Positions 28,519-40,624 of a DNA stretch of 64,000 nucleotides are shown here, in pieces. The translations under genes and the position numbers were made by a program. Numbering within the stretch: position 1 is the first letter of the stretch; each line of letters starts with the position of its first letter. The stretch is from NCBI RefSeq assembly GCF_000174435.1, contig NZ_ACJN02000002.1:1108363-1172362 (forward strand), in the 5' to 3' direction. The notes under the pieces are model-generated. The model saw only the letters and a list, made by a program, of their open reading frames with translations, was not told the origin of the DNA and did not search any database. This DNA is from Desulfonatronospira thiodismutans ASO3-1 (GTDB taxonomy: Bacteria > Desulfobacterota > Desulfovibrionia > Desulfovibrionales > Desulfonatronovibrionaceae).

Positions 28519-29394
28519 ATGACAGCCATTCAAAACCGCTATGAATTCGTGTATCTTTTTGACGTAGAAAACGGAAACCCCAACGGCGATCCAGACGCTG
28601 GCAATATGCCCCGTATTGACCCGGAAACAGGGTACGGATTGGTGACTGATGTCTGCCTTAAGCGCAAGGTCCGAAATTTTGTAGATATTGTCAAAAACAA
28701 TGAGCCTGGATTCAAAATATATATTGCCGAGAAAGCCGTTTTAAATCAAACAAATGAGATGGCTTACAAAGCCTTGGATTTAAAGCCAGAGAAAAAGAAA
28801 TTGCCCAAAAAATGGGAGGACGCCCGTAAAGTCACTCGCTGGATGTGTGATAATTTTTATGATGTGCGCACCTTTGGAGCGGTTATGACCACTGAAGTCA
28901 ACTGCGGACAGGTGCGGGGCCCTGTTCAACTCACTTTTGCCAGAAGCATAGAGGAGATTGTCCCGGCAGAGGTCAGCATAACCCGGATGGCAGTGACTAA
29001 TGAAAGAGATCTTGAAAAAGAGCGTACCATGGGACGAAAGCACATAATCCCATATGCTCTGTATCGTGCAGAAGGATTTATATCCGCACATCTGGCAGAT
29101 GGTGATAAGGGGACCGGGTTTTCTGAAGCAGACCTCAATCTTCTGTGGCAGGCCATGGAAAATATGTTCGATCATGATCATTCCGCCGCTCGAGGTAAAA
29201 TGAATGCTCGCAGGCTAATCATCTTCAAGCATGACTCCAAGTTGGGCAACGCCCCAGCGCACAAGCTCTTTGATCTAGTCAAAGTCGAGCGGGCCACAGA
29301 TCCTGAAAAGCCTCCCCGCTCCTTTTCCGACTACACAATAGCAATAGACCAGGCCAATATCCCCCAAGGGGTCACTTTGGAGCAAAGACTGTAA
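28519..29394 (+). CDS. cas7c: Type I-C Cascade backbone Cas7c
   Basis: A 291-residue Csd2-family protein that forms the filament along the crRNA. Typical blocks are the N-terminal [35 protein letters not shown], and [19 protein letters not shown]. The length is as expected. It follows cas8c directly and is followed 21 bp later by the four-helix gene. Confidence 0.96.
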
Positions 29395-29415
29395 CAAATT
29401 ATCAGGAGGCCCCTT

Positions 29416-29985
29416 GTGACCTCAAAACAGGAACCGCCCCAACTTATCCCGGCTCACGGTGGATATCAGGATCTTAAATCGTATCAGATGGCAGAGCTTG
29501 TATATGACGGCACGGTCAAGTTTTGCCAGCGATTGGTTAATCCTCGTTCGCGGACGCATGATCAGATGGTCCAGGCCGCTCGAAGCGGCAAGCAGAATAT
29601 CGTTGAGGGCAGTATGGCCTCCGGTACTTCCAAAAAGACAGAATTGAAATTGGTCGGGATTGCCAGGGCCAGCCTGGAGGAACTGCTCCAGGACTTTCAG
29701 GACTTTCTGCGTCTTAAAGGATATTCACTCTGGGGCAAGGATCATCCACTATCCAAAACTGTTCGTGGGCTTTGTTACAAGAAGGATAGGTCCTATGCGA
29801 CATATAGGACATATATTGAAAACGCCCCGCCGGAGGTCGCAGCCAATACCATGATCTGCCTGATCCATCAGACCAACTATCTTCTGGATCAGCAGTTAAG
29901 GGCTTTGGAGAAAGAATTTCTGGAAGGGGGAGGCTTTACCGAGCGGCTTTACCGGACCCGTTCACAGGCGCGCAGAAAGGGCTGA
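29416..29985 (+). CDS. Four-helix bundle protein inserted in the cas operon
   Basis: A 189-residue protein of the four-helix bundle (S23/IVP, Avd-like) group with a suffix domain. The core LKSYQMAELVYDGTVKFCQ...QMVQAARSGKQNIVEGSMAS...ARASLEELLQDFQDF matches the family's R-S-x-x-x-N-I-V-E-G signature. The C-terminal MICLIHQTNYLLDQQL and GGFTERLYR segments match the suffix domain as I recall it. GTG start with AGGAGG upstream. It sits between cas7c and cas4 (21 bp and 4 bp gaps), an unusual place in a I-C operon, and must be co-transcribed. Relatives help retroelements or sit in 23S rRNA; a CRISPR role is not known to me. Confidence 0.8.
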   Translation: MTSKQEPPQLIPAHGGYQDLKSYQMAELVYDGTVKFCQRLVNPRSRTHDQMVQAARSGKQNIVEGSMASGTSKKTELKLVGIARASLEELLQDFQDFLRLKGYSLWGKDHPLSKTVRGLCYKKDRSYATYRTYIENAPPEVAANTMICLIHQTNYLLDQQLRALEKEFLEGGGFTERLYRTRSQARRKG

Positions 29986-29989
29986 TTGT

Positions 29990-30613
29990 ATGAGAGACAC
30001 TGAATCTCTGCCCATCTCGGCATTGCAGCATTATTTGTACTGTCCCAGACAATGTGCCCTTATTCATGTGGAAATGGTCTGGGAGGAAAACTTGTTTACT
30101 GCCGAGGGTCGACTACTGCATAAACGGGTTGACGCAGGCGAGGCCGGCAGACGTGGCAGTATCGATGAAGAGAGATCTGTGCCGGTGCGCAGTGAACGCT
30201 TGGGCCTTTATGGAGTGGCTGATGTGCTTGAGATGCGAACTGGAGCATCAGGCAGCAGTATCCCCTATCCGGTGGAATACAAAAGAGGCAGCCCCAAAGT
30301 GGGGGACTGGGACCGGGGGCAACTGTGTGCTCAGGCAATGTGCCTGGAAGAGATGCTTGAACTGACAATAAGGGAGGGAGCTATTTTTTATGGCCGCCCC
30401 CGTCGTCGTGAGAAAGTTATCTTTGATGATGTCCTCAGGGAAAAAGTGGAAGTGAGCTGCCGGGCAATGCATTCGTTGATTGAAGGCGGGGTCACTCCTC
30501 CTCCGGAACACGGCCGACATTGTAAGAACTGCTCTTTGCTACGGGTATGTATGCCCAAATTGAGTAAGCAACGTAAGGTGGAAAAATACTTGTTGCAGGG
30601 GCTGGAACAGTGA
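29990..30613 (+). CDS. cas4: CRISPR adaptation nuclease Cas4
   Basis: A 207-residue RecB-like protein that trims prespacers and sets PAM choice. The first cysteine lies in YLYCPRQCALIH, the nuclease residues in PVEYKRGSPK, and the three C-terminal cluster cysteines in HCKNCSLLRVC, together able to hold a 4Fe-4S cluster. The stop overlaps the cas1 start. Position before cas1-cas2 is the standard I-C order. Confidence 0.95.
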   Translation: MRDTESLPISALQHYLYCPRQCALIHVEMVWEENLFTAEGRLLHKRVDAGEAGRRGSIDEERSVPVRSERLGLYGVADVLEMRTGASGSSIPYPVEYKRGSPKVGDWDRGQLCAQAMCLEEMLELTIREGAIFYGRPRRREKVIFDDVLREKVEVSCRAMHSLIEGGVTPPPEHGRHCKNCSLLRVCMPKLSKQRKVEKYLLQGLEQ

Positions 30614-35699: not shown

Positions 35700-36076
35700 T
35701 TACGATAGCCGAAAAGAGTAGGAAAGAGTAGAAAAGTAAAGATGTAAAAGTAGAGCCGCACCCGCCCCCCTGCTTTACTGCGATAAAAACTCGGTGTCCG
35801 ATCCGGACATAGTGCCTGGGTGGCAAGCTGTCTTAAGAAGCTGTCGAAAGGGGAGGTTTTGCCAACTCCATGCTGTTGGTCGTCACTTGGTGTTGGTTTG
35901 GTAAACTGCTTGGGGCGATAGGAGAAGAACTAAGCAGCTGCCAGACTTTTCCCTTACTCCGTTCAGGGCCAGAAGGTTTGTGTTCCATGGTCAACGGTCT
36001 TTTACTCTGATGTTTGCACTTGACTAAATTTAAGATACATGGCAGTATTACAAAAAATACAAAAGGGGGGGAGATT

Positions 36077-36316
36077 ATGGAAAATACAAAAATGCACACT
36101 GTTAGACTCCCTGTCGGTCTATCTCAAAGGCTGAAACTTTTATCCAAGGCTACAAAACGCACAAAGTCCCACTTCATACGAGAGGCTTTGGAAAGGACGC
36201 TTGAGGACCTGGAGGACGCATATTTGGCTGAAACCGCCTACGAAGAGTATTTGAAGAGCAAAGAGAAAGCCATATCTCTTGAAGACGTGGAGCGAGACAT
36301 TGACTTGGCAGATTAG
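36077..36316 (+). CDS. relB: RelB-type ribbon-helix-helix antitoxin
   Basis: A 79-residue protein with an N-terminal ribbon-helix-helix (HTVRLPVGLSQRLKLLSKATKRTKSHFIREAL) and a charged C-terminal tail for toxin binding. The ATG at 36077 follows a GGGGGGGAG stretch; the longer frame from 36014 has no ribosome site. It overlaps the toxin gene by 17 bp. It probably represses its own promoter as in other RelBE pairs. Confidence 0.88.
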   Translation: MENTKMHTVRLPVGLSQRLKLLSKATKRTKSHFIREALERTLEDLEDAYLAETAYEEYLKSKEKAISLEDVERDIDLAD

Positions 36317-36572
36317 CTTTACTCCAGGGGCGGAAAAAGAACTTAAGAAGTTGGGGAAACAAGAATCACAAAGGATTACTCGATACCTTAAAGAGCGTGT
36401 AACTCAGGACCCCAGAGCGTTGGGCACAGTCCTTAAGGGACAGCTGCGGGAGTTTTGGCGGTACCGGGTTGAGGATTACCGTGTGTTGGTGAAAATCCAA
36501 GACGAAAAGTTGCTTATCCTTGTTATCCATAGAGTACATCGAAGTAAAAGTTATTTTGCTGTCGATCCATAA
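36300..36572 (+). CDS. relE: RelE-type mRNA interferase toxin
   Basis: A 90-residue RelE/ParE-fold protein (WQISFTPGAEKELKKLGKQESQRI; LKGQLREFWRYRVEDYRVLVKI; VIHRVHRSKSYF). The basic and aromatic residues of the C-terminal half, RYRVEDYR and HRSKSYF, are those used for mRNA cleavage at the ribosome. The start is a TTG inside relB, giving the normal RelE length. The pair looks intact. Confidence 0.88.
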   Translation: MTWQISFTPGAEKELKKLGKQESQRITRYLKERVTQDPRALGTVLKGQLREFWRYRVEDYRVLVKIQDEKLLILVIHRVHRSKSYFAVDP

Positions 36573-37830: not shown

Positions 37831-38120
37831 GGTAACTGGTATTCGTTTTATTGAACAAAATATGGGCCGGATATTTTTTATAGACTGGAAGACTCCGTGA
37901 AAGGCCGGTATCAATGGAAGCAGTTCAATTGCATTTTGTCAAATAAATAAACTGGGTCTGTCCTGTGGCCATAAATTTAACTCTGCTTGTATGTTGCTTT
38001 TGGATGTGGCAGGTATTGTGGCGTGAATATGCAGTACTCAGGCGGGACCTTGATGGGTCACCCCACTGACTTGAGTCAATTCCGGAAATTAATCCGTCCC
38101 GTAGTGTTATGGAGGTAATA

Positions 38121-38876
38121 ATGAGCTTTTACTGGCCGGCATATAACGAACTGGCCTGGACCGAGGAACTCCTGGCCGATCCGGCTGAATATGAATACGA
38201 AGCCGGGTTCTACGTGGAGCTTATAAAAGGCACAGCCAAAGGTGATACCCCCCGGACCCTGCTGCACCTGGGCAGCGGTGCAGGCATGCACGACTGCGTA
38301 TTCAAGAGGCATTTCACGGTCACCGGGGTGGACCTGAGTCCGGGCATGCTGGAGAAAGCCCGCGCCAAAAATCCTGATGTGCAATATCATAAAGGAGACA
38401 TGCGCAGCATTCGCCTGGGCCAGAAGTTCGATGCCGTGGCCATTCCGGACAGTACAGACTACCTGGTTACCCGGGATGATCTATACCGGGCCGTAAACAC
38501 CGCTGTAGAGCATCTCAAAGCAGGTGGTGTCTTGCTGGTTACCGCTAAACCCAAAGAAACCTTTCAAAACAACAACTTCTCCTACACCGGAGAAAAAGAC
38601 GGCCTGCACCTGACCCTGCTGGAGAATAACTACATAAATCCATACCGGCATGATACCTATGAAGCCGTGTTCGTGTATCTGATCCGGCAGCAGGGGGAGC
38701 TGACCATACATACGGATCACCATGTCCTGGGGCTTTTTTCCAAAAGGACCTGGGAACAGGCTTTCAGGGATGCCGGTCTGGACATGCAGGAAAAAAAACT
38801 GCACGGTGTCTACGAAAGGTATATTATTGACGGGGGCTCATATCCGCTGACCGTGTTTGCGGGTATAAAGAAGTGA
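38121..38876 (+). CDS. Class I SAM-dependent methyltransferase
   Basis: A 251-residue Rossmann-fold enzyme. SAM-binding motif I is LLHLGSGAGMHDC near residue 52, followed by VTGVDLSPGMLEKAR and the KGDMRSIRLGQKFDAVAIPDS segment. The substrate cannot be told. GGAGG is 5-6 nt before the ATG at 38121. A diverged copy of its last 120 bp lies further downstream at 39198-39317. Confidence 0.88.
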   Translation: MSFYWPAYNELAWTEELLADPAEYEYEAGFYVELIKGTAKGDTPRTLLHLGSGAGMHDCVFKRHFTVTGVDLSPGMLEKARAKNPDVQYHKGDMRSIRLGQKFDAVAIPDSTDYLVTRDDLYRAVNTAVEHLKAGGVLLVTAKPKETFQNNNFSYTGEKDGLHLTLLENNYINPYRHDTYEAVFVYLIRQQGELTIHTDHHVLGLFSKRTWEQAFRDAGLDMQEKKLHGVYERYIIDGGSYPLTVFAGIKK

Positions 38877-39111: not shown

Positions 39112-39197
39112 TGTTTACTCCTTTTTAATCCTGTTTACTTTTTGTATGACATGTACCTGCCAAATAATCAACAACAATGTTCAAAGGAGTGTGGGGC

Positions 39198-39317
39198 CAG
39201 GCTTTCAGGGATGCCGGTCTGGACATACAGGAAAAAATACTGGACGGTGCATAAGAAATGTATATTATTGATGCAGGTTCATATCCGCTGACTTTGCTTG
39301 CGGGTATAAAGAAGTGA
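39198..39317 (+). pseudogene. Duplicated 3' end of the methyltransferase
   Basis: These 120 bp repeat 38757-38876 with scattered changes and small indels, including the final YPLTVFAGIKK-like codons and stop. The copy carries a frameshift and lacks a start, so it is not translated as a methyltransferase. It suggests a tandem duplication followed by loss of the intervening copy, or capture of the tail together with the small minus-strand gene. Confidence 0.8.
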
Positions 39318-39354: not shown

Positions 39355-40092
39355 ATGGGAAAGTATTGGTTGTTCATGGCTTTTTTTGTGGCTGTTTTGC
39401 TGGGGGGTTCTGAACTGAGGGCTCAGGACTGGCTGCAGCGCGGTATGGACGCCTTGCGCGATCAGCCTGATGCAACAGAAAAATCAGGGCTTGCGGATTC
39501 GGAGATTGCCGAAGGTTTAAGAGAGGCCCTGCGCATCGGCAGTGAAAACGTAATCAGTCACCTGGGCCGGGAGGATGGATATTACCAGGACCCTAAAGCC
39601 CATATCCCTTTGCCTGTAAGTCTGCAGAACGTGCAAAACATTCTGGAGAGGGCCGGGATGGGACATATGCTTGATGACCTGGAGCTGCGCATGAACCGCG
39701 CCGCTGAACAGGCCACTCCCAGGGCCAGGGAGATGTTTGTGCAGGCCATTTCCGAGATGACCCTGGATGATGTCCGCGGGATATACAACGGTCCTGATGA
39801 CGCAGCCACACGGTATTTTGAGGGCACCATGTCCGGGCCGCTGTCGGAGGAGTTTACCCCGCTGGTCAGGGAGAGTCTTGCGGATGTGGGCGCGGTAAGG
39901 GCTTATGAAGACCTGATGTCCAGGTATCAACAGCTTCCGTTTGTACCGGATGCCCGGGCGGATATTTCTAAGCACGTTGTGGATCATTCCATAGAAGCCA
40001 TCTTTGAGTATCTGGCTGTGGAGGAGGCCGCCATCAGAAACGATCCCCTGAAGCAGACCACGAGCATGCTGCAGCGCGTGTTCGGCAGATGA
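39355..40092 (+). CDS. DUF4197 exported protein
   Basis: A 245-residue protein with a signal peptide (MGKYWLFMAFFVAVLLGGSE...AQ, residues 1-23). Family blocks: SEIAEGLREALRIGSENVI, FVQAISEMTLDDVRGIYNGPDDAATRYFE and LMSRYQQLPF. Function is unknown; it should be periplasmic or membrane-attached. The selenoprotein gene follows 113 bp downstream on the same strand. Confidence 0.9.
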   Translation: MGKYWLFMAFFVAVLLGGSELRAQDWLQRGMDALRDQPDATEKSGLADSEIAEGLREALRIGSENVISHLGREDGYYQDPKAHIPLPVSLQNVQNILERAGMGHMLDDLELRMNRAAEQATPRAREMFVQAISEMTLDDVRGIYNGPDDAATRYFEGTMSGPLSEEFTPLVRESLADVGAVRAYEDLMSRYQQLPFVPDARADISKHVVDHSIEAIFEYLAVEEAAIRNDPLKQTTSMLQRVFGR

Positions 40093-40205
40093 TGCAGGCC
40101 GATAGCTTTTCAACATGCTGATATAATTGACGATAGATTCAGGCAGGTTGTGGGTGGAGGACAGGAGGAGTTGCCCGCAAAAAAATAACAAAAGGAGATT
40201 CGTTT

Positions 40206-40541
40206 ATGTCACTGACAGAGTTGAATAAAGAAGACGATTTTCAAAAGGAAGTCATGGAGCACCCGGGTTATGCTGCAGTTCTTATGCACATGCCCACCTG
40301 ACCGGATTGCAGGTCTGCGGTGCAGGCCCTGAAGGAAGACAGGCACGGCCTGGATTCCAGGCTAAAGGTGCTGGCCTTTGAGATTGAAAGCCCCCGGAAC
40401 CTGCCCTCCTGGGCGGCAGGGGTGCGCGGTGTGCCCACCTTTATAATTTTCAAAGACGGTCAGGAGGTGGACAGGCTGGTAGCCACCGGTAGAGACGATA
40501 TCGTGGCCAGGCTTTCAGAGTGGATTAAGGCTAATGCCTGA
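40206..40541 (+). CDS. Thioredoxin-like selenoprotein with in-frame UGA (UxxC)
   Basis: Read through one UGA (40299-40301, codon 32), the frame gives 111 residues. The upstream part is MSLTELNKEDDFQKEVMEHP followed by GYAAVLMHMPT. Then comes Sec-P-D-C, where Sec takes the place of the first cysteine of a CxxC active site. The downstream part has the thioredoxin cis-proline motif VRGVPTFIIFKDGQEVDRL and a final helix. AAGGAG lies 8 nt before the ATG. Codon use and fold are continuous across the UGA, so a plain stop is unlikely. A hairpin suitable as a bacterial SECIS follows directly. It is probably a cytosolic thiol-redox protein. Confidence 0.85.
40299..40331 (+). promoter_or_regulatory. Candidate bacterial SECIS hairpin
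   Basis: After the UGA, GGUCUGC (40312-40318) pairs with GCAGGCC (40322-40328) around a GGU loop, with a further AU and CG pair beyond a one-base bulge. The loop starts 18 nt after the UGA and has G at its first positions, as SelB-type elements require. The string GCAGGTCTGC also occurs, as I recall, in the apical part of the Escherichia coli fdhF SECIS. Confidence 0.75.
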
Positions 40542-40624
40542 CCAACTGGAATGAAACATTTTCCTGGTGAAAAAAATGGCCTGTCCAGCCTGATAACTGG
40601 CTGCTTCAGGGCAACTCAGGGGCT

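What the first reader, a model, noticed from the sequence alone, without database searches (positions are those of the whole stretch)
40206..40541. Thioredoxin-like selenoprotein with UxxC active site
An in-frame UGA falls exactly where the first catalytic cysteine of a CxxC motif belongs (Sec-P-D-C). The protein continues with a proper thioredoxin cis-proline motif, and a compact GGU-loop hairpin follows 10-27 nt after the UGA. A normal gene caller would split or discard this gene. The sequence part is direct; Sec insertion is inference from SECIS rules.
Basis: partly seen in the sequence, partly recalled or inferred. Interest (0 to 1): 0.85.

Follow-up and report, generated by a model that had tools for sequence, protein, structure and literature searches.

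The report
Overlooked selenocysteine thioredoxin of Desulfonatronospira
A bacterium of the genus Desulfonatronospira carries a small thioredoxin-type gene with a stop codon (UGA) exactly where its close relatives have the first cysteine of the active-site motif; that codon is very likely read as the rare amino acid selenocysteine, and the protein database searched lists only a 73-residue fragment without the motif.

Summary
At 40206-40541 a 111-codon thioredoxin-domain gene has UGA at codon 32 (T-U-P-D-C). Two other Desulfonatronospira assemblies (each 79% identical to it) keep that UGA; codons before and after it show equal purifying selection (dN/dS about 0.2). Uninterrupted relatives in two Desulfohalobiaceae have cysteine there (CPEC). 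A 17-nt GGU-loop hairpin, 17 nt after the UGA, meets the published bacterial SECIS model and is conserved in the UGA genes; neither cysteine gene has a hairpin that meets it. The genome has selA, selB, selC, selD and three formate-dehydrogenase-like genes with UGA. All seven hits of the direct protein search are 73-residue fragments. Sec insertion is strongly supported inference; no protein was measured. UxxC selenothioredoxins are known, so this is a new, narrowly distributed, mis-annotated branch of a known kind. The cysteine relatives follow a TrxB/AhpF-like reductase gene of which Desulfonatronospira has no close copy, so the electron donor of the Sec form is open. Against: the unconstrained fold from the UGA does not prefer the hairpin, Rfam reports no SECIS, one UGA-bearing MAG gave no SelB hit, and three of seven genus genomes lack the gene.

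The parts
40206..40541 (+). Thioredoxin-domain gene, 111 sense codons (the UGA included) plus terminal TGA
   Evidence: Translation; Pfam Thioredoxin 33.6 bits against cut-off 23.5; two relatives 79% identical over 1-111
40192..40198 (+). Shine-Dalgarno-like AAGGAGA, 7 nt before the ATG
   Evidence: Read from the sequence
40299..40301 (+). In-frame UGA, codon 32, first residue of the UxxC motif
   Evidence: same codon in L043 and L044; Cys codon (TGC, TGT) in L045 and L046
40308..40310 (+). Codon of Cys35, the predicted resolving cysteine
   Evidence: Invariant in 15 of 15 aligned sequences
40312..40328 (+). Predicted bacterial SECIS hairpin, 7 bp, apical loop GGU at 40319-40321
   Evidence: -9.5 kcal/mol, spacing 17 nt, loop 3 nt; one substitution among three UGA genes, which turns a G-U pair into A-U (and Ala into Thr); the same 17 nt in fragment L016
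40434..40436 (+). Codon of Pro77, the cis-proline position of the thioredoxin fold
   Evidence: Invariant in 15 of 15 aligned sequences; the cis geometry was not measured
40320..40541 (+). 73-residue GTG-start ORF after the UGA, the form found in the protein database; lacks the active site
   Evidence: ORF list; 7 of 7 hits of the direct search are such 73-residue fragments

Best explanation
The gene encodes a thioredoxin-domain protein, predicted to act as a thiol oxidoreductase, in which the in-frame UGA at codon 32 is very likely decoded as selenocysteine to give a Sec-Pro-Asp-Cys active site. Shown: the UGA, its conservation, the coding selection on both sides, Cys at this position in relatives, the hairpin sequence and the Sec machinery genes in the genome. 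Inferred: SelB with Sec-tRNA(Sec) would bind the GGU-loop hairpin and decode the UGA, while the second UGA, at the end of the gene (not tested for a hairpin of its own), would terminate as usual. Inferred: the selenolate of residue 32 would attack a substrate disulfide or oxidised thiol, Cys35 would resolve the intermediate, and a thioredoxin reductase would restore the reduced form; the TrxB-like protein encoded next to the trxA-like gene elsewhere in the genome is the most likely donor, because no close copy of the reductase that stands next to the Cys relatives was found here.
For: Trx domain above Pfam cut-off. UGA at the same codon in L043 and L044, records titled Desulfonatronospira sp.; Cys in L045 and L046. 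NG86 dN/dS among the three UGA genes: 0.19-0.23 before the UGA, 0.19-0.24 after it. Hairpin meets the bSECIS constraints given in PMC13188914 (passages read; test); its 6 third codon positions are invariant against 44 of 110 variable in the gene (P about 0.04); neither Cys gene has a hairpin that meets the model. selB, selA, selC (81.1 bits, gathering 47) and selD found in the genome; selD and three formate-dehydrogenase-like genes also hold an in-frame UGA. AlphaFold2 model pLDDT 89.3, pTM 0.84; best PDB matches are thioredoxins, TM about 0.78. The genome has a separate trxA-like/trxB-like pair.
Against: No protein or selenium measurement. The unconstrained fold of 52 nt from the UGA does not contain the hairpin here or in L043 (z 0.00 and -1.01), only in L044 a GGU-loop form (z -2.36); the GGU-loop hairpin is in 9 of 9 folds when the first 9 or 11 nt, UGA included, are left out, as a ribosome might cover them. 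No Rfam SECIS match. The hairpin test is not very specific: 43 of 2077 window TGAs pass it, and of 4 other UGA genes of the genome only 1 passes the -7.5 cut-off in my ungapped version (others -7.4, -7.3, -5.0). SelB was not found in G022, a 530-contig MAG that carries the UGA gene. The gene was not found in 3 of 7 genomes of the genus (97, 82 and 66% complete). Electron donor and substrate unknown.
Confidence: 0.9

Rival explanations
1. A pseudogene: a cysteine codon mutated to a true stop, or a sequencing error.
For: One base separates TGA from TGC or TGT; the gene was not found in 3 of 7 genomes of the genus.
Against: The same TGA in three separate assemblies, two of them 79% identical to the window's protein; equal purifying selection before and after it.
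Confidence: 0.04
2. The 73-residue ORF from GTG 40320 is the real gene, as the database has it, and the upstream part is not translated with it.
For: 7 of 7 hits of the direct search start there.
Against: It starts at codon 39 and so lacks the first helix, the first two strands (strand-helix order) and the UxxC motif; codons 1-31 are conserved as protein (22-24 of 31 identical among UGA genes, 11-14 of 31 against Cys genes) and the upstream ATG has a Shine-Dalgarno-like site.
Confidence: 0.03
3. The UGA is read through by another route (a near-cognate tRNA such as Trp) or causes regulated termination, without Sec insertion.
For: Sec insertion was not measured; the hairpin is not the most stable fold of the stretch.
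Against: Cys, not Trp, in relatives at this position; Sec machinery present; model-fitting hairpin in the UGA genes and not in the two Cys genes; each of the three genes also ends in TGA, so general UGA readthrough is unlikely.
Confidence: 0.03

Closest known systems
UxxC thioredoxin selenoproteins (PF00085; listed as experimentally verified in PMC13188914 and counted in PMC1794560; passages of both read)
   Same: Thioredoxin domain, Sec in place of the first catalytic Cys, UxxC motif
   Different: This branch has T-U-P-D-C and lies apart from the thioredoxins sampled (100/100); among 348 class genomes the UGA form was found in three, all Desulfonatronospira. The sequences of the known Sec-thioredoxins were not fetched or aligned.
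Canonical thioredoxin TrxA (TIGR01068)
   Same: Fold, cis-Pro position, resolving Cys
   Different: 30.9 bits against an equivalog cut-off of 96.8; 25 and 27% identical to two TrxA-like rows with WCGPC; the genome has its own trxA-like gene
CPEC thioredoxin-like proteins of Desulfohalobiaceae (L045, L046)
   Same: Same branch, 41 and 38% identical over 107 residues, no WCGPC
   Different: Cys instead of Sec, no hairpin that meets the model, a TrxB/AhpF-like reductase gene upstream (9 nt in L045, about 330 nt in L046)
Homolog of AhpF N-terminal domain, a UxxC selenoprotein family (TIGR02187 in the table of PMC13188914)
   Same: A UxxC Trx-fold protein; the analogy rests on the AhpF/TrxB-like reductase beside the Cys relatives
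   Different: TIGR02187 is not among the matches of P0001, and orthologue L014 scores 12.4 bits against a cut-off of 185

Membership tests
Bacterial selenoproteins | In-frame UGA inside a conserved reading frame | tested here: met
   3 of 3 complete genus genes; dN/dS 0.19-0.24 on both sides
Bacterial selenoproteins | Cys at the UGA position in uninterrupted homologues | tested here: met
   L045 and L046, plus P0009 and P0010, all CPEC
[quoted passage not shown]
   Loop GGU, 7 bp, 17 nt, -9.5 (constraints from PMC13188914); but it is not in the unconstrained fold of 52 nt and Rfam has no match
Bacterial selenoproteins | selA, selB, selC, selD in the genome | tested here: met
Bacterial selenoproteins | Selenium present in the protein | not testable with these tools
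   Needs 75Se labelling or mass spectrometry
Thioredoxin domain (PF00085) | Score above the gathering cut-off, Trx fold, redox pair two residues apart, cis-Pro position | tested here: met
   33.6 bits against 23.5; model and Foldseek; motif and Pro77. The cis geometry was not measured.
Thioredoxin TrxA equivalog (TIGR01068) | Score above the equivalog cut-off; WCGPC motif | tested here: not met
   30.9 bits against 96.8; motif TUPDC
Named Trx-like selenoprotein models in NCBIfam (SaoT NF040730, HUIPC NF047660) | Match to the model | tested here: not met
   Neither appears among the matches up to E 10 for P0001, L014 or L017 (HMMER's filters drop most very weak matches)

The most novel reading that the evidence does not exclude
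A distinct Sec-thioredoxin branch in which the change between Cys and Sec goes with a change of electron donor: the Cys forms are wired to a dedicated TrxB/AhpF-like reductase encoded next door, while the Sec forms, standing alone in the genome, work without that reductase and draw electrons from the general TrxB or directly from sulfide and polysulfide of these sulfur-metabolising cells.
Probability: 0.15. Interest if true: 0.6.

Novelty: new member of a known kind. Interest (0 to 1): 0.42.

Why it matters
It adds a well-supported selenoprotein gene that the protein database holds only as a 73-residue fragment without its active site, and it gives a natural pair of Sec and Cys versions of one small protein in related bacteria, in which the role of selenium and of the partner reductase could be compared.

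Tried and rejected
Rfam scan of 40200-40560 for a SECIS family: only one weak lncRNA match below its gathering score. Unconstrained folds from the UGA: not decisive. A first hairpin test with limits of my own, chosen after seeing the hairpin, gave 8 of 2078 TGAs as strong, with the published limits, replaces it. Search of the window for further UGA candidates: 43 of 2077 TGAs pass the hairpin model, 2 of 158 with open flanks; the second (29645) was rejected because a 189-codon ORF runs through it in another frame. Gene neighbourhood as a clue in Desulfonatronospira: the order differs between the window (methyltransferase, DUF4197, this gene), L043 (methyltransferase, this gene, DUF4197 by likeness to the window's) and L044 (genes that look from recall like CorC and hydrogenase subunits downstream), so no conserved operon. 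Orthologue of the L045 reductase: 29-34% identity at best in 5 of 5 Desulfonatronospira genomes searched, against 100% and 87% full-length in the two Cys genomes (G023 holds a further 100% partial copy on another contig). Direction of the Cys/Sec change: two clades on long stems, so it cannot be polarised. Promoter and terminator scan: matches on the - strand only. Whether the gene belongs to the known Sec-thioredoxins by descent was not tested, since none of them was fetched.

Full report
What is there. The + strand at 40206-40541 holds 111 codons with one internal TGA at codon 32 (40299-40301) and a terminal TGA. An AAGGAGA stands 7 nt before the ATG. With U scored as C the protein matches Pfam Thioredoxin at 33.6 bits (cut-off 23.5) over residues 8-102. 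The UGA is the first residue of the redox motif (T-U-P-D-C) and Pro77 stands at the cis-proline position.

Conservation. In 150 genomes of the order (94 with some match at E 1e-5, nearly all of them weak matches to other thioredoxins) and 348 of the class (7 with a match at E 1e-12) the close family was found in six genomes: three with the UGA (own, G022, G037), one fragment whose contig begins at codon 36, after the UGA (G042, so its codon 32 is unknown), and two uninterrupted with Cys (G038, G023). The seventh match (G161) has WCGPC and groups with the TrxA-like rows. In the named collection the matches are L043 and L044, titled Desulfonatronospira sp., and L045 and L046, titled Desulfohalobiaceae bacterium; L014 of G022 lies within L043 and L015 of G037 within L044, which places the window's genome, of the same genus, in Desulfonatronospira. 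Within the genus the gene was found in 4 of 7 genomes; the three without it are 97, 82 and 66% complete. Identity to the window's protein is 79% for both L043 and L044, and 41 and 38% for L045 and L046. NG86 dN/dS among the three UGA genes is 0.19-0.23 before the UGA (31 codons) and 0.19-0.24 after it (75 codons). Equal constraint on both halves speaks against a true stop between them.

The hairpin. 40312-40328 reads GGUCUGC-GGU-GCAGGCC. The review PMC13188914 (passages read) gives the bSECIS model as a 3-9 nt loop with G in its first two positions, a 4-16 bp stem, 16-37 nt spacing and -7.5 kcal/mol or less; this hairpin has 3 nt, GGU, 7 bp, 17 nt and -9.5. It is the same in L044 and in the fragment L016, and in L043 carries one substitution that turns a G-U into an A-U pair. 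None of its 6 third codon positions varies among the three UGA genes, against 44 of 110 in the gene (P about 0.04). Neither Cys gene has a hairpin that meets the model (best -0.3 and none). Limits: 43 of 2077 window TGAs pass this model, 19 of them at -9.5 or lower; of four other UGA genes of the genome (selD and three formate-dehydrogenase-like) only one passes -7.5 in this ungapped version, the others scoring -7.4, -7.3 and -5.0. Folded freely from the UGA, the stretch prefers other pairings in the window and in L043; with the first 9 or 11 nt left out, UGA included, a GGU-loop hairpin is in 9 of 9 minimum-energy folds, in 2 of them with a shifted lower stem. Rfam gave no SECIS match. Of 158 window TGAs with open frames on both sides two pass, and the other lies across an ORF of another frame.

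Machinery. The genome has selB, selA, selC with 81.1 bits against a gathering score of 47 and selD, the last with an in-frame UGA. Three formate-dehydrogenase-like genes hold a UGA followed by His-Ser; one of them is over the TIGR01553 cut-off, two are not. Among eight related genomes SelB was found in 6 and SelA in 6: G022, which carries the UGA gene, had SelA but no SelB hit, G023 had SelB but no SelA hit, G057 had neither. Both Cys genomes have SelB, so loss of the whole machinery does not explain their Cys.

Annotation. The direct protein search returned seven hits, all 73-residue fragments that begin after the UGA, one of them named thioredoxin family protein [Desulfonatronospira sp.]. 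A profile search added two full-length CPEC relatives (P0009, P0010) and more distant thioredoxins. No NCBIfam model was matched above its cut-off.

Fold and kin. AlphaFold2 on 15 aligned sequences gave pLDDT 89.3 and pTM 0.84; Foldseek's 50 best PDB matches are mostly thioredoxins or thioredoxin fusions at 20-28% identity. A tree of 17 rows puts the UGA and CPEC forms in one branch (100/100) apart from the other thioredoxins sampled, including the genome's own TrxA-like protein; long stems warn against reading more from it.

Partner. In L045 the gene starts 9 nt after the end of a 328-residue reductase gene, and in L046 it follows a like gene after about 330 nt. The L045 reductase scores highest with AhpF (271.5 bits) and TrxB (252.2) models, below both cut-offs. 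Five Desulfonatronospira genomes have only 29-34% matches to it; in the window's genome one of these stands right behind the trxA-like gene. So the Sec form stands alone, and a TrxB-like protein as its donor is inference.

Literature. UxxC thioredoxin selenoproteins are listed as experimentally verified in PMC13188914 (passages; the work cited there, Kim and others 2015, was not held) and counted in PMC1794560 (passages). Searches for Desulfonatronospira with selenoprotein found one paper, on another subject by its title and abstract, and with selenocysteine none (listings only). The finding is therefore a new, narrowly spread branch of a known kind, with a clear case for Sec and an open question about its donor and substrate.

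Noticed in passing
window 39183-39302 +: A degenerate second copy of residues 212-251 of the 255-residue methyltransferase at 38109-38876 (70% identical, with an in-frame stop) lies just before the DUF4197 gene.
   Followed up: partly
window 39355-40092 +: DUF4197 protein (234.6 bits) upstream; in L043 a like gene lies downstream of the UGA gene instead, so the order has changed within the genus.
   Followed up: partly
G000:C1:798564, C1:698686, C2:191490 and C2:173669: Three formate-dehydrogenase-like genes and selD of the same genome each hold an in-frame UGA, so the organism very likely makes several selenoproteins.
   Followed up: partly
window 28519-30613 +: Run of three ORFs that look, from recall only, like a CRISPR Cas7-type protein, a four-helix-bundle protein and a Cas4-type protein; the middle one would be unusual there.
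   Followed up: no
window 36014-36572 +: Two overlapping small ORFs that look, from recall only, like a RelB/RelE-type antitoxin-toxin pair.
   Followed up: no
L045:5422-6261, L046:5551-6390: A 279-residue protein, universal-stress-like from recall only (no NCBIfam match for the L045 copy), follows the CPEC thioredoxin gene in both Cys genomes.
   Followed up: no
G023:C20 and G023:C210: G023 holds two copies of the reductase, one 87% and one partial copy 100% identical to that of L045: two strains in one MAG or a duplication.
   Followed up: no
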